Origin: Candidatus Bathyarchaeota archaeon | GTDB taxonomy: Archaea; Thermoproteota; Bathyarchaeia; 40CM-2-53-6 | Assembly (NCBI GenBank): GCA_005888755.1 | Contig: VBBQ01000004.1 | Coordinates: 1 to 15,794 of the forward strand | Direction of reading: 5' to 3' | DNA length: 15,794 nucleotides | Shown here: piece after piece, positions 208-13,836 of the stretch | Layout of the letters: each line of letters starts with the position of its first letter | Numbering within the stretch: the first letter of the stretch is position 1 | Program-made: the position numbers and the translations under genes | The notes under the pieces: generated by a model | Databases searched by the model: none | What the model saw: only the letters and a program-made list of their open reading frames with translations | What the model was told of the DNA's origin: nothing

Positions 208-696
208 TCACCTTGTCACCGAGAAAGTGAACTGGTTGTTTCGCGAGGTAATCATCAGTACGGTGTACGAGTAGCCGGATGTGAATGTATAGGCTGAACC
301 TGTCAAGGTGCAAGTACCGCAACTGCTTCCTATGGTGAAGGTAATCGAAGCGCTCGTGTTGGGGGCTATCGTTGGTCCCGCTCCAGTGTTGTAATTGTAC
401 TGGTATGAGTTGCCGTTCGCGTCCTTCACATAGTACGTTACGAGAGTGGTGTTCGCAGTACCCAAGTTATTGATGTACGCCGTCATACTTGTGCCGCTTG
501 CGAACGCACCAGAGTTCGTAACATAGTTCAAACTCTCTTGGCCAGTTGTGGGATGTACCAGTAAGGTGCCGAGTAGTCCTGTCGACCAGGCGTAAACCAT
601 GACTGACGCGACGACGACGATGACGACCATGAGTAGTGCTGCAAGAATCGTGTCGATGCCTTTCTTGTCATTGAGACATTTGCGAATTGGTTTCAT
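208..696 (-). CDS. Type IV pilin/archaellin-like protein (paralogue A)
   Basis: This is a predicted prepilin of 162 residues, counting from ATG 696. The frame could also start at GTG 708, but that codon sits inside the AGGTGATC Shine-Dalgarno site (710-703), which is well spaced for ATG 696. The leader MKPIRKCLNDKKG is followed by IDTILAALLMVVIVVVASVM, a class III signal peptide with cleavage expected after Gly13. The rest is a Ser/Thr/Asn/Gly-rich beta-type ectodomain, typical of extracellular pilins, ending in FSVTR. A CGTC motif in the second half could form a disulfide. It lies 16 nt after the stop of its paralogue and is presumably co-transcribed. The core helix and the following LLVHPTTGQE stretch are nearly identical to the paralogue, while the ectodomains differ. 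The subunit presumably assembles into a surface filament after processing by the peptidase encoded at 2697-3509. Pilus versus archaellum cannot be decided from this sequence. Confidence 0.8.
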   Translation of the reverse strand: MKPIRKCLNDKKGIDTILAALLMVVIVVVASVMVYAWSTGLLGTLLVHPTTGQESLNYVTNSGAFASGTSMTAYINNLGTANTTLVTYYVKDANGNSYQYNYNTGAGPTIAPNTSASITFTIGSSCGTCTLTGSAYTFTSGYSYTVLMITSRNNQFTFSVTR

Positions 697-1117
697 TTCT
701 TGGATCACCTGTTTACCGGGTCACCGAGAACGAGAATTGAGTGTTCCGTGAAGTAACCATGGTAATAGTGTAGGAGTAGCCTGAGGTGAATGTGAAGGCG
801 TTTCCGGTCAGAGTGCAGGAAGATCCACAGCCCGCATTGATGAGGACGATGATTCCCTTCACTTGGTTGGGAGCGATCACTGGAGGTGCATTGGGGGCTC
901 CCCACGATATCCGCGAATACTGGTTTCCGCTGGAGTCTTTGACAAAGTAGCTGGTGAGAGTAACGTTTACTGTGCCGAGTTCTCTAATACTCATTGTAAC
1001 GTTGGTGCCTGACGTGAAAGAGCAGGGGCTGCATGCCTCTAGGCTCAAATTCTCTTGGCCAGTTGTGGGATGAACTAGTAAGGTGCCGAGTAGTCCTGTC
1101 GACCAGGCGTAGACCAT
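535..1117. repeat. Direct repeat shared by the two pilin genes (535-600 and 1052-1117)
   Basis: Two 66-nt blocks 517 nt apart differ at only three positions by eye. They encode the end of the pilin core helix and the following STGLLGTLLVHPTTGQE stretch. The flanking core-helix DNA is also similar, with more synonymous differences. This is the conserved 5' part of a recent tandem duplication, or of genes homogenised by conversion. Confidence 0.8.
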
Positions 1118-1213
1118 AACGGATGCAACGACAACGATAACGACCATAAGTAGAGATGCAAGTATGGTGTTGATGCCTTTCTTGTTCCCTGTTATTTTTT
1201 CCAATTTTTTCAC
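713..1213 (-). CDS. Type IV pilin/archaellin-like protein (paralogue B)
   Basis: This is the tandem paralogue upstream of the pilin at 208-696. The first possible start is GTG 1213, but that codon is part of the AAGGAGTG Shine-Dalgarno run. TTG 1204 lies 8 nt beyond AAGGAG and is equally plausible, giving 163 residues instead of 166. The leader ends in TGNKKG and is followed by INTILASLLMVVIVVVASVM, a class III prepilin signal. The ectodomain has two cysteine pairs, CSPC near residue 61 and CGSSC near residue 130. These are candidates for disulfides that stabilise an extracellular fibre. The C-terminus FTSGYSYT...FSFSVTR matches the paralogue closely. The gene probably heads a pilin operon preceded by a small winged-helix gene. 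It is clearly a pilin-type protein, but its filament type is unknown. Confidence 0.8.
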   Translation of the reverse strand: MKKLEKITGNKKGINTILASLLMVVIVVVASVMVYAWSTGLLGTLLVHPTTGQENLSLEACSPCSFTSGTNVTMSIRELGTVNVTLTSYFVKDSSGNQYSRISWGAPNAPPVIAPNQVKGIIVLINAGCGSSCTLTGNAFTFTSGYSYTITMVTSRNTQFSFSVTR

Positions 1214-3938: not shown

Positions 3939-5273
3939 GTGGCCCCAGTGCTAACTGAGTTTCACATCGGAATCGACGACACCGATTCAAGACTAGGAGG
4001 ATGCACCACATACACTGCAGCGCTCCTTTTCCAAGAGCTAGTATCCAAAGGACTCAAACCCATCGACTTTCCCTGGTTGGTAAGGCTCAACCCTAACATT
4101 CCCTGGAAAACACGCGGAAACGGAGCCCTCTCACTCCACTTCAGTCTCAAAGAAGAACAACTGAATGAGGTGAAGAAAATTGCAGTTTCAGTTGTCGAAC
4201 GGACGACCGACGCTAGCCAGCGATCAACAGACCCAGCTATAGTATTCCTCAAAGGCCCGGTACCAAGCTCATTCTCCGTTAGAGAAGCGCGAAATGTCGC
4301 GGATGCAGTGGGCGCGGAAACGCACTTGCTCAAAGGGTCTCGAGGACTTGTCGGGGCTCTAGCAAGCCTTGGAGCAGACTTCAACGGCGATCATACTTTC
4401 GAGATTATTGCATATAGGACACCCGAAAACATCGGGACGACCAGAAGGGTGAATCATGACTCAGTTCGTCGAATGGATGCAATGTTCCGCGGCTTAACTT
4501 TCAACAATGTCGACCCTGAAACAGGGAGAGTACTCATTTGTCCTCACGGCCCCGACCCTGTTCTGCTTGGAGTCCGAGGCGAAGACCCTGCAAGCGTCGC
4601 TAAGGCGTTCAATCAAATCGAGATCGATGAACCGATCGAAAGGGTCATAATCTTCAAGACGAACCAGGGAACAGATGCTCATCTAAGTTGTCGCAGAAGA
4701 ATCGAAACACTTGAGCCCCACCAATCCGCAGTGATTACTGGAAGGGTCAGCGATGCCCCTCGAATGCTTCGCGGAGGCCACGTAATTTTCAGAACAAGTG
4801 ACGAGACAGGATTGGTTTACTGTGCAGCCTACAGGGCAACAGGACCCGTTCGTGAAGCGGCTCTTCAGCTAGTTCCTGAGGACTCGGTTATCGTTTCAGG
4901 TGGAATCCGGTCTCGGTCCCTTGGAGAGTTGACCCTGAACGTGGAAAAACTGGAAGTGACCGGATTAGTTGATGTGGTTCGGCAGGAGAACCCTCTATGT
5001 TCTCGCTGCGGAGCTCGATGTGAATCTGTGGGCAAAGGTCAAGGATTAAGATGTAAAAAATGTAAAACCCGGTTACCGAAGACATCACGGGTCCAGACGC
5101 AAGTTCATCGAAAAATTTCGCTAGGCATCTATCTTCCGCCGCCTAGGACCCATCGACATCTGACCAAGCCGGCTTCTAGAAATGAAATCCATCGCGTCAC
5201 TCCATTCGAAACCAGTACCCCCAACATCGATCAAACACTTGAGCCACTAGTTTCAATTTCTCCCGCGTCTTGA
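3939..5273 (+). CDS. tiaS: tRNA(Ile2) 2-agmatinylcytidine synthetase TiaS
   Basis: This 444-residue enzyme attaches agmatine to C34 of tRNA-Ile2 (anticodon CAU) using ATP, so that the tRNA reads AUA as isoleucine and not AUG. The N-terminus has the family signature GIDDTDS (residues 11-17), followed by NPNIPWKTRGNGA (51-63) and TNQGTDAHL (241-249). Next come an OB-fold-like part (about 264-340) and a C-terminal zinc ribbon with cysteines at 354, 357, 372 and 375 (an extra Cys at 361). This is the full TCKD, ferredoxin-like, OB and zinc-ribbon order known for TiaS. A basic tail follows. The start is GTG 3939, and GTG 3948 would also keep the signature. No clear Shine-Dalgarno site is visible. 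An out-of-frame ATG overlaps the start. The gene follows an Lrp-like gene and precedes the initiator tRNA gene. The protein is essential in most archaea studied. Confidence 0.93.
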   Translation: MAPVLTEFHIGIDDTDSRLGGCTTYTAALLFQELVSKGLKPIDFPWLVRLNPNIPWKTRGNGALSLHFSLKEEQLNEVKKIAVSVVERTTDASQRSTDPAIVFLKGPVPSSFSVREARNVADAVGAETHLLKGSRGLVGALASLGADFNGDHTFEIIAYRTPENIGTTRRVNHDSVRRMDAMFRGLTFNNVDPETGRVLICPHGPDPVLLGVRGEDPASVAKAFNQIEIDEPIERVIIFKTNQGTDAHLSCRRRIETLEPHQSAVITGRVSDAPRMLRGGHVIFRTSDETGLVYCAAYRATGPVREAALQLVPEDSVIVSGGIRSRSLGELTLNVEKLEVTGLVDVVRQENPLCSRCGARCESVGKGQGLRCKKCKTRLPKTSRVQTQVHRKISLGIYLPPPRTHRHLTKPASRNEIHRVTPFETSTPNIDQTLEPLVSISPAS

Positions 5274-5317: not shown

Positions 5318-5327
5318 CTTTTAAAAC
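5318..5327 (+). promoter_or_regulatory. TATA box of the initiator tRNA gene
   Basis: CTTTTAAAAC lies about 30 nt before the first base of the tRNA, the expected distance for an archaeal TATA box. It sits in the 79-nt gap between the TiaS stop and the tRNA. Confidence 0.6.
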
Positions 5328-5352: not shown

Positions 5353-5479
5353 AGCGGGGTGGGGTAGCCAGGTTTAACCCGCAGGGCTCATAACCCTGAG
5401 ATTGGTCGATGGAAGTTCGATCCTCAAGCGGTGGCTCGAAGGGCTCTTGTGGGACCCGAAAGTCCACCCCCCGCTACCA
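5353..5479 (+). tRNA. Initiator tRNA-Met (CAT), with probable introns in the T-arm region
   Basis: The acceptor stem AGCGGGG (5353-5359) pairs with CCCCGCT (5469-5475), and ACCA is encoded at 5476-5479. D-stem GGGT/ACCC (5362-5365, 5377-5380) and anticodon stem CAGGG/CCCTG enclose loop CTCATAA with anticodon CAT (5389-5391). A1-U72 pairing and three G-C pairs next to the anticodon loop mark it as the initiator. The span is 127 nt, about 48 nt longer than a mature tRNA, and all the excess lies after the variable loop. The likely T-stem is GGTGG (5430-5434) with CCACC (5464-5468). A 22-nt intron at 5441-5462 is suggested by a bulge-helix-bulge fold: CTCG/CGAA helix with one mismatch, bulges AA|G and AG|T. 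It would leave T-loop CTCGAAT. A further 26 nt near 5404-5432 must also be removed. Its ends are ambiguous because GGT is repeated there. Confidence 0.85.
5441..5462 (+). other. Predicted 22-nt intron in the tRNA T-loop
   Basis: The outer helix is the T-stem (GGTGG with CCACC). The next four positions CTCG pair with CGAA (5457-5460) except for one C-A mismatch. Three-base bulges follow on each strand, and the intron interior closes with GG/CC. Cutting after the second base of each bulge removes exactly 22 nt and leaves a 7-nt T-loop. The archaeal splicing endonuclease recognises this type of motif. The prediction is manual, and the terminal loop is weak. Confidence 0.5.
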
Positions 5480-12082: not shown

Positions 12083-13747
12083 TTAGGTGCCGGTTATGGG
12101 CTCTATGTGTACCGCGCTGCAGCCGCAGCCGTCCGCGTGCTTTCCACGTCGTAGCTGTCCACGGTAGAGGCGTGATTCAAGCTTCTCGCCATTCTTCTTC
12201 TCCCACTCTTCCACGCTGATACCGTATTTCTTCTGTATCCTGTCACGGTACCATTCGGGGATGACGTTGAAGCTGCAGAATGGAATGATCCTCATGTCTG
12301 GTGTAAGGTAGTGTATGTCGCATCGCTGTAGTCGCTCTTCGTCCTGGTTGTACTTGTCCTGGAAGTGCATCATGCCGAGGAACATGCTTCGGACATGGAA
12401 CTGTCCCACTGAGCTGTAGTCGTGTTTCAGCAAGGCTCCTACGAGCAATTTGCTGAGGTTGAGTCCTGCTGGTTGCTTGTCTTTCTCGATGAAGCTGTTC
12501 AGTTTGGTAATGAATTTCGCAGCAACCAGGTACTTGTTTGTGCCCGAGTTCAGCTCGTCGGTTTTCTCGTCAAGGTACTCGAATAGTCCTTTGAGGTCTA
12601 CGAACGATGTGATGGGAACCATCTTCTTGGTGTCTTTGTCCTCGAACACGTATGTTCCGGCACCGCACGCGAAGTGTATCGAGAGTTCGTACTGGGGTCG
12701 CTTCGTGAATGCTTCTACGAAGTGGGTTACTGGTGAGCAGCTTGGGACTGGGAACCACGCGTCTCGTGGGATCTCTCCGTTGGTCTGCTCTTCGATTCTC
12801 TCGATGCAGTCTGGAATGGTTATTCGGTACTTTTCCCTCTCTTGCTTCTTCATTCGTCCCGTTAGGGATACTGGCTGGTAGCTGATTGCTCGAACGATGT
12901 CGATGTTTCTCTGGGCGAAGCGCAGTATGCCGCCAAGCTCGTGATCATTGATTGACTTGATGACGGTCGGGACGAGTACTACTCCTAGGTTTGCTTTTCG
13001 ACAACTCTCGATTGTGTAGGGTGCTTCCCAGTGGTTCTTGGGGTTGGTCTTGGGGCTAACTCCGTCGAAGCTCATGTAGAGGTTGCTGAGCCCGTTATCG
13101 CGTAGGATATGGGCTAGGTTGGGGTTGAGTGCGAGGTTAATGCCGTTCGTGTTGAGCTGGATATGGTCTACTCCCTCATCCTTAATGATCTTGACGATCT
13201 CTGGAAGCTCTGGTCGTAGGGTCGGTTCTCCTCCGGTTATCTGGAGCGAGTTTCCTGGTACGGGCCTCTCAGCTTTGAGAGCTCGGACCATTTCTTTGAC
13301 CTGGTCGAGGCTCGGCTCGTACACGTACGCTCCTTCCAGTCCCTTCTTGACGTAGAAGAAGCAGTACCAGCAGGTCAAATCGCAACGGTTGGTAACGATG
13401 ATATTCGCAAGACCGGTGTGGCTGAGGTGGTTGGAGCATAATCCGCAGTTTGCGGGGCATGCGCAGCTCTCGATCGGGACGTTCGGTGCGTGGGTTCCTT
13501 TGCCGTCAGACCAGTAGGTCGCGAACTTTTGATACATGTCGTATGAGCCGAAGTAGAGCTCTTCTGTCTCACCGTGCTCTGGGCAGGTCTTGGTCATGAA
13601 GACCTTGCCTTCCCGCTCGAAGACGGTGCTCGGGAGAATGCGGTTGCATTCCGGGCAGATGCTTTGCGTTCGGCGAATGAATTGTCCTATTTGCTTCTGT
13701 GGCGACTGTAGTTCCGCCGGTAGTTCGATTTCTAATAGTGCCATCAT
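12083..13747 (-). CDS. tes: Radical SAM enzyme, tetraether lipid synthase (Tes)-like
   Basis: From ATG 13747 (MMALLEIELPAEL) the protein has 554 residues; 21 further codons upstream to 13810 look non-coding. The radical SAM motif is CDLTCWYC (Cys122, 126, 129), with GGEPT at 172-176. Other cysteine groups are CPEC (31, 34) with Cys55, then SCACPANCGLC (95, 97, 101, 104) just before the SAM motif, and GCGC near the C-terminus. This array is the arrangement of the archaeal Tes family, which joins two archaeol lipids by C-C bonds between phytanyl tails to make macrocyclic archaeol and GDGT membrane lipids. Characterised Tes carries several [4Fe-4S] clusters, consistent with the extra cysteines. 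It acts on membrane phospholipids. A TrmB-like regulator is divergent. A different substrate in a related radical SAM family is possible but less likely. Confidence 0.8.
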   Translation of the reverse strand: MMALLEIELPAELQSPQKQIGQFIRRTQSICPECNRILPSTVFEREGKVFMTKTCPEHGETEELYFGSYDMYQKFATYWSDGKGTHAPNVPIESCACPANCGLCSNHLSHTGLANIIVTNRCDLTCWYCFFYVKKGLEGAYVYEPSLDQVKEMVRALKAERPVPGNSLQITGGEPTLRPELPEIVKIIKDEGVDHIQLNTNGINLALNPNLAHILRDNGLSNLYMSFDGVSPKTNPKNHWEAPYTIESCRKANLGVVLVPTVIKSINDHELGGILRFAQRNIDIVRAISYQPVSLTGRMKKQEREKYRITIPDCIERIEEQTNGEIPRDAWFPVPSCSPVTHFVEAFTKRPQYELSIHFACGAGTYVFEDKDTKKMVPITSFVDLKGLFEYLDEKTDELNSGTNKYLVAAKFITKLNSFIEKDKQPAGLNLSKLLVGALLKHDYSSVGQFHVRSMFLGMMHFQDKYNQDEERLQRCDIHYLTPDMRIIPFCSFNVIPEWYRDRIQKKYGISVEEWEKKNGEKLESRLYRGQLRRGKHADGCGCSAVHIEPITGT

Positions 13748-13751
13748 ATAC

Positions 13752-13836
13752 CACTCTGAGTAGTGAATACGCCTGGCGGGACCGGTATTAATGCTTTTGA
13801 CACCAGTCACAAGGTGAAATAGGGTACTACTCTGAG
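13752..13836. promoter_or_regulatory. Divergent promoter region between Tes-like gene and TrmB-like regulator
   Basis: The 98-nt gap (13748-13845) holds a minus-strand TATA-like GCATTAATAC (13794-13785), about 40 nt before ATG 13747. ACTCTGAG occurs twice in the gap (13753-13760 and 13829-13836). The first copy is part of ACTCTGAGTAG and the second of CTACTCTGAG. They lie close to each start codon and could be binding sites for the neighbouring regulator. Plus-strand GAGGGGTG (13833-13840) serves as the ribosome site of the regulator gene. Confidence 0.4.

What the first reader, a model, noticed from the sequence alone, without database searches (positions are those of the whole stretch)
5353..5479. 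Initiator tRNA-Met with two probable introns, both on the T-arm side
The anticodon arm is intact while about 48 extra nt lie between variable loop and acceptor 3' strand. The 22-nt part (5441-5462) fits a bulge-helix-bulge exactly and yields a 7-nt T-loop. The 26-nt remainder has ends that slide by three bases over repeated GGT (5404-5406 and 5430-5432). It contains a decoy T-arm-like hairpin, GGA AGTTCGA TCC. Most archaeal introns sit in the anticodon loop, so multiple T-arm insertions in the initiator tRNA are unusual. They could require ordered splicing. The mature T-loop would have C at position 54.
Basis: partly seen in the sequence, partly recalled or inferred. Interest (0 to 1): 0.65.

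Follow-up and report, generated by a model that had tools for sequence, protein, structure and literature searches.

The report
Doubly interrupted archaeal initiator tRNA gene
This soil archaeon's only gene for the tRNA that starts every protein is broken by two small introns; it belongs to a known kind of archaeal tRNA gene, but its relatives carry up to four such introns in this one gene, one more than the literature I could read reports.

Summary
The finding is real. Window 5353-5479 is the single initiator tRNA-Met gene of a Bathyarchaeia genome (nearest named relatives are soil Bathyarchaeota MAGs). It carries two bulge-helix-bulge (BHB) introns. Splicing then restores the canonical variable loop AGAUC with C48. 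The 'decoy T-arm' is not conserved. C54 is unique to this genome. Both introns are present in every family member whose gene I could read; central helices form at the predicted register in 25 of 25 (A) and 23 of 23 (B) distinct introns. Very different intron sets in relatives splice to the identical 76-nt tRNA. Relatives add introns at 15/16, 29/30 and 37/38. Two genomes (L116, L198) appear to have four introns in this one gene, where reviews give three as the archaeal maximum. The genome is intron-dense and encodes both subunits of an (alpha-beta)2-type splicing endonuclease. Splicing is inferred; no RNA data were available. New member of a known kind, with a notable record among its relatives.

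The parts
5319..5326 (+). TATA-like promoter box TTTTAAAA, 34 nt upstream of the tRNA
   Evidence: conserved at the same distance in most genus relatives that have the same upstream type
5353..5402 (+). exon 1: initiator tRNA-Met positions 1-47 (acceptor 5' strand, D arm, intact anticodon arm CAU, variable loop AGAU)
   Evidence: sequence; aligned to relatives
5403..5428 (+). intron A, 26 nt, tRNA position 47/48; BHB: central UGAG 5397-5400 / CUCA 5423-5426, bulges AU|U 5401-5403 and AG|C 5427-5429, inner helix GGUCGA 5404-5409 / UCGAUC 5417-5422, outer CC/GG 5395-5396 / 5430-5431
5429..5440 (+). exon 2: C48, T-stem 5' strand GGUGG and T-loop start CUCGAA (C54 private to this genome)
5441..5462 (+). 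intron B, 22 nt, tRNA position 59/60; BHB: central 5435-5438 / 5457-5460 (first pair C-A mismatched here, U-A in relatives), bulges AA|G 5439-5441 and AG|U 5461-5463, outer helix = T-stem
5463..5479 (+). exon 3: U60, T-stem 3' strand CCACC, acceptor CCCCGCU, A73, encoded CCA
   Evidence: sequence
3939..5273 (+). neighbouring gene, probably tiaS-like (tRNA-Ile2 agmatidine synthetase; named from memory, family not tested); same order upstream of the tRNA in many relatives
   Evidence: ORF; homologues in Bathyarchaeota with iMet just downstream

Best explanation
It is the organism's only initiator tRNA-Met gene. A primary transcript, driven by the TTTTAAAA box about 34 nt upstream, contains two BHB introns. 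The heterotetrameric (alpha-beta)2 splicing endonuclease cuts each intron two nucleotides into its 3-nt bulges, removing 5403-5428 (47/48) and 5441-5462 (59/60). An RtcB-type ligase (inferred, not searched here) joins the three exons into a 79-nt tRNA including CCA. That tRNA is identical to the clade's canonical initiator except for C54. Shown: gene, single copy, conserved intron places, conserved BHB pairing, both endonuclease genes. Inferred: transcription, cleavage, ligation, and any order of removal.
For: Single copy in G000: only one exact GGGCTCATAACCC and one AGCGGGGTNGGGTAG. All family-f1 relatives whose gene was found keep both 3'-side introns. Central helices are formed in 25/25 (47/48) and 23/23 (59/60) distinct introns and collapse on 1-2 base shifts; inner-helix pairs covary (for example GC/CG, AT/GC/TA/CG). 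Genes with differing sets of three or four introns splice to one identical 76-nt sequence. C48 gives the expected G15-C48 pair and matches the variable loop of a class member with no 3'-side intron (L051). ARAGORN calls the full 79-nt tRNA-Met(CAU) only after both introns are removed. Two PF01974 genes are present: the alpha subunit matches Aeropyrum pernix endonuclease over its whole length (E 4e-42) with Tyr/His/Lys sites kept and a crenarchaeal-type loop GFFGKPVGIPKP; the second is a diverged copy lacking those residues.
Against: No RNA data. C54 weakens the first central pair of intron B's BHB and is unique among the 95 genes parsed; it could be an assembly error or the start of decay. The isolated precursor's minimum-energy fold does not form BHB B and forms BHB A with pair probability of about 0.78.
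Confidence: 0.93

Rival explanations
1. The same two introns, but intron A spliced at the reader's slide (5404-5407 to 5429-5432), leaving U48.
For: The GGT repeat makes the ends ambiguous on sequence alone; ARAGORN accepts this product too.
Against: No 1-2 base shift gives a central helix in any of 25 homologues; the +3 shift gives three or more pairs in 18 but is a worse fit than 25/25 at register 0. The repeat is missing in most relatives. U48 would break the G15-C48 pair and differ from relatives without this intron.
Confidence: 0.04
2. A decaying pseudogene, with the functional initiator tRNA encoded in the missing part of the assembly (G000 is about 95% complete).
For: C54 is private and weakens a BHB pair; the genome is a 48-contig MAG.
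Against: Relatives are also single-copy with the same introns; all other exon bases are canonical; promoter box and CCA are intact.
Confidence: 0.03
3. One composite insertion of about 48 nt removed in one step, with the T-stem 5' strand taken from elsewhere.
For: The two introns lie only 12 nt apart; an automated two-intron search picked a 47-nt single intron at 49/50 for this gene.
Against: That product scores 26.6, against 33-36 for well-resolved tRNA genes. GGUGG (5430-5434) is invariant in the genus and pairs with CCACC. The 59/60 intron occurs alone in other families (L158, L167, L173, L195).
Confidence: 0.01

Closest known systems
Multi-intron tRNA genes of Thermoproteales (Pyrobaculum, Thermofilum; Sugahara 2008, cited in PMC8450103 and PMC4033280)
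   Same: Small BHB introns at non-anticodon positions, several per tRNA, (alpha-beta)2 endonuclease
   Different: Those are hyperthermophiles with at most three introns per gene; here a soil Bathyarchaeia lineage with initiator introns at 47/48 and 59/60, and two relatives with four
Permuted initiator tRNA-iMet of Thermofilum pendens (PMC3218864)
   Same: Initiator tRNA interrupted at 59/60 (and 37/38) with a BHB at the T-loop
   Different: There the halves are circularly permuted; here the order is normal with an intron at the same site
Soil Asgard archaea (Atabeyarchaeia, Freyarchaeia; PMC11291895)
   Same: 92-95% of tRNA genes with introns, over half with several, often non-canonical, in wetland soil archaea
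   Different: Different phylum; intron number per gene and initiator details are in a supplement I could not read
Split initiator tRNA of Nanoarchaeum equitans (Table 1 of PMC3218864)
   Same: Disrupted initiator tRNA rejoined at a BHB
   Different: Trans-spliced halves at 37/38, not cis introns

Membership tests
Archaeal BHB tRNA intron | 3-nt bulges flanking a 4-bp helix at both splice sites | tested here: met
   A: 4/4 central and 6 inner pairs; B: 3/4 central and 2 inner pairs, 4/4 in nearly all relatives
Archaeal BHB tRNA intron | Removal yields a standard tRNA | tested here: met
   ARAGORN tRNA-Met(CAU) after in-silico splicing, none before
Archaeal BHB tRNA intron | Conserved at the site with covarying pairs among relatives | tested here: met
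   25 and 23 distinct introns
Archaeal BHB tRNA intron | Actually cut and ligated in the cell | not testable with these tools
   no RNA data
Archaeal initiator tRNA-Met | A1-U72, GGG/CCC anticodon stem, CAU, single gene | tested here: met
(alpha-beta)2 splicing endonuclease | Catalytic alpha plus non-catalytic beta paralogue in the genome | tested here: met
   Two PF01974 genes; alpha aligns to A. pernix 3p1z_B at E 4e-42 with Tyr, His and Lys kept; beta lacks them by eye
(alpha-beta)2 splicing endonuclease | Heterotetramer that cuts relaxed BHBs | not tested
   would need recombinant protein
Permuted or split tRNA | 3' part upstream of the 5' part, or on another locus | tested here: not met
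   all exons are in normal order within 127 nt

The most novel reading that the evidence does not exclude
In this clade the single-copy initiator tRNA gene is a hotspot of BHB intron turnover (positions 15/16, 18/19 or 19/20, 29/30, 37/38, 47/48, 59/60). At least two genomes (L116: 29/30+37/38+47/48+59/60; L198: 19/20+37/38+47/48+59/60) carry four introns in this one tRNA gene, above the three-intron maximum given in the literature I could read.
Probability: 0.7. Interest if true: 0.5.

Novelty: new member of a known kind. Interest (0 to 1): 0.4.

Why it matters
Every protein in the cell depends on this one tRNA, yet its gene needs two (in relatives up to four) cut-and-join events to become functional. 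A soil lineage in which intron sets differ between close species while the mature tRNA stays identical is a natural test bed for how archaeal tRNA introns are gained and lost, and for whether heavy tRNA intron load goes with the (alpha-beta)2 endonuclease rather than with heat. It also explains why a standard tRNA finder misses the initiator tRNA here.

Tried and rejected
Decoy T-arm hairpin: not conserved, a by-product of the palindromic inner helix UCGA/UCGA. Second initiator copy: none; the one-mismatch hit C32:25231 lacks recognisable tRNA arms. Ordered splicing: folding of the isolated precursor was not informative, and ARAGORN finding a shortened tRNA once A alone is removed is weak evidence. 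A first general tRNA-intron script had an indexing bug at U33 and was replaced; that script, limited to two introns and the best-scoring candidates, misplaced the iMet introns, so iMet rests on the template-based parse. The first template parse failed on genes with short 37/38 introns and was relaxed. The tree of the neighbouring protein needs three gain/loss changes for the D-loop intron but does not firmly reject one origin. Sugahara 2007 was not held.

Full report
What is there. Window 5353-5479 reads AGCGGGG-UG-D arm-intact CAU anticodon arm-AGAU, then 26 extra nt, then CGGUGG-CUCGAA, then 22 extra nt, then U-CCACC-CCCCGCU-ACCA. ARAGORN finds no tRNA in the raw window, and Rfam gives only a partial sub-threshold hit of 23.4 bits. 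After both insertions are removed, ARAGORN gives tRNA-Met(CAU), 79 nt with CCA. The genome (2.0 Mb, 48 contigs, about 95% complete) shows no other initiator gene. Named close homologues of the upstream protein are mostly soil Bathyarchaeota MAGs, with the same tRNA close downstream in most of them.

Where the introns are. Fifteen congeneric genomes and two other genera of the family share the same 3'-side architecture; a third genus, G019, does too but with further introns. A dynamic-programming parse against a mature initiator template with BHB scoring resolved 95 distinct class-level genes. Intron A is 47/48, 5403-5428: central helix UGAG 5397-5400 with CUCA 5423-5426, bulges AUU and AGC, inner helix of six pairs. 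Intron B is 59/60, 5441-5462, with the T-stem as outer helix. Over 25 distinct 47/48 introns the central helix is complete in all; shifts by one or two bases never give three pairs, and the +3 shift gives three or more in 18. Over 23 distinct 59/60 introns all have at least three central pairs (mean 3.87), and none do at shifts of one or two. Because the parse rewards BHB pairing, these counts are partly built in; the independent support is that the exon template alone fixes the ends to within a few bases and that the resulting tRNA is canonical. Inner-helix pairs change on both sides while staying paired. Shuffling the intron letters reproduces both motifs at their places with frequency 5e-5.

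Its GGT repeat is absent from most relatives, and only 5403-5428 leaves C48, the partner of G15 in standard tRNA (established knowledge) and the base present in L051, which has no intron there. The decoy T-arm is not conserved. C54 is real in this sequence and unique among the genes parsed; it turns the first central pair of BHB B from U-A to C-A.

The clade. Of 95 genes, 42 have no intron, 25 one, 10 two, 16 three and two four. Most of the three- and four-intron genes of the order, with different intron sets and lengths from 132 to 168 nt, splice to exactly the same 76-nt sequence. Additional sites are 15/16 (22-44 nt), 29/30 and 37/38. L116 (G019, 67% complete) parses to 29/30, 37/38, 47/48 and 59/60. 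L198 (G186, 90% complete) parses to 19/20, 37/38 (printed as the equivalent 38/39), 47/48 and 59/60. Each is the only initiator-type gene found in its genome with this pattern. The weakest elements are the 12-nt 37/38 intron in L116 (three of four central pairs, one inner pair) and the exact ends of the D-loop intron in L198. A review, the permuted-tRNA paper and the tRNAscan-SE 2.0 paper put the archaeal maximum at three introns per tRNA gene; a search for 'four introns' found nothing in the listed papers, but the library is partial.

The rest of the genome. An in-silico splicing search over the Rfam tRNA candidates (35 loci) resolved 17 loci with a cloverleaf score of 30 or more. Fifteen of these carry one or two BHB introns and nine carry two. 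With a stricter cut of 33, 11 of 13 carry introns and five carry two. The best of 210 shuffled loci scored 23.2. Exact positions in that survey are approximate. The initiator gene is thus one of many interrupted tRNA genes here.

Machinery. Two PF01974 genes exist. One (C46, 194 codons open) aligns end to end with the Aeropyrum pernix endonuclease, E 4e-42, keeping the GADFAVY, IDHAP and VRK motifs and a loop resembling the Crenarchaea-specific loop. The other (C32) is diverged and lacks those residues. This fits the (alpha-beta)2 type, which is associated with non-canonical introns. I did not search for the RtcB ligase.

Mechanism and limits. Most likely each BHB is cut in its bulges and the exons are ligated. 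The inner parts of both motifs are compatible with each other; the two outer pairs of BHB A compete with the T-stem and its central helix borrows U42 and G43 from the anticodon stem, so an order of removal is plausible but unproven. Precursor folding alone does not settle it.

Verdict. The finding is correct in substance. It is a new member of a known kind: intron-dense archaeal tRNA genes, already known from Thermoproteales and recently from soil Asgard archaea. The surprising part lies in the relatives: intron turnover concentrated in the initiator gene and two apparent four-intron genes.

Noticed in passing
L116 (G019 C17) and L198 (G186 C211): Initiator tRNA genes that parse to four BHB introns each and splice to canonical tRNAs.
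   Followed up: partly
L160 (G127): Initiator tRNA with a single 55-nt intron in the D-loop (18/19 by the parse).
   Followed up: no
L051 (G038 C2:153568 onward): Initiator tRNA with apparently two introns, both in the D arm, and none on the 3' side.
   Followed up: no
window 3939-5273: A tiaS-like gene (by memory) lies directly upstream of the initiator tRNA, an order kept in many relatives; both concern CAU-anticodon tRNAs.
   Followed up: partly
window 12083-13810 (-): Radical SAM protein resembling tetraether lipid synthase (by eye; not searched).
   Followed up: no
window 208-1213 (-): Two tandem pilin/archaellin-like proteins with GIDTILA/GINTILA N-termini (by eye).
   Followed up: no
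genome G000, tRNA loci: Most tRNA genes of this genome carry one or two introns at many non-canonical positions.
   Followed up: partly
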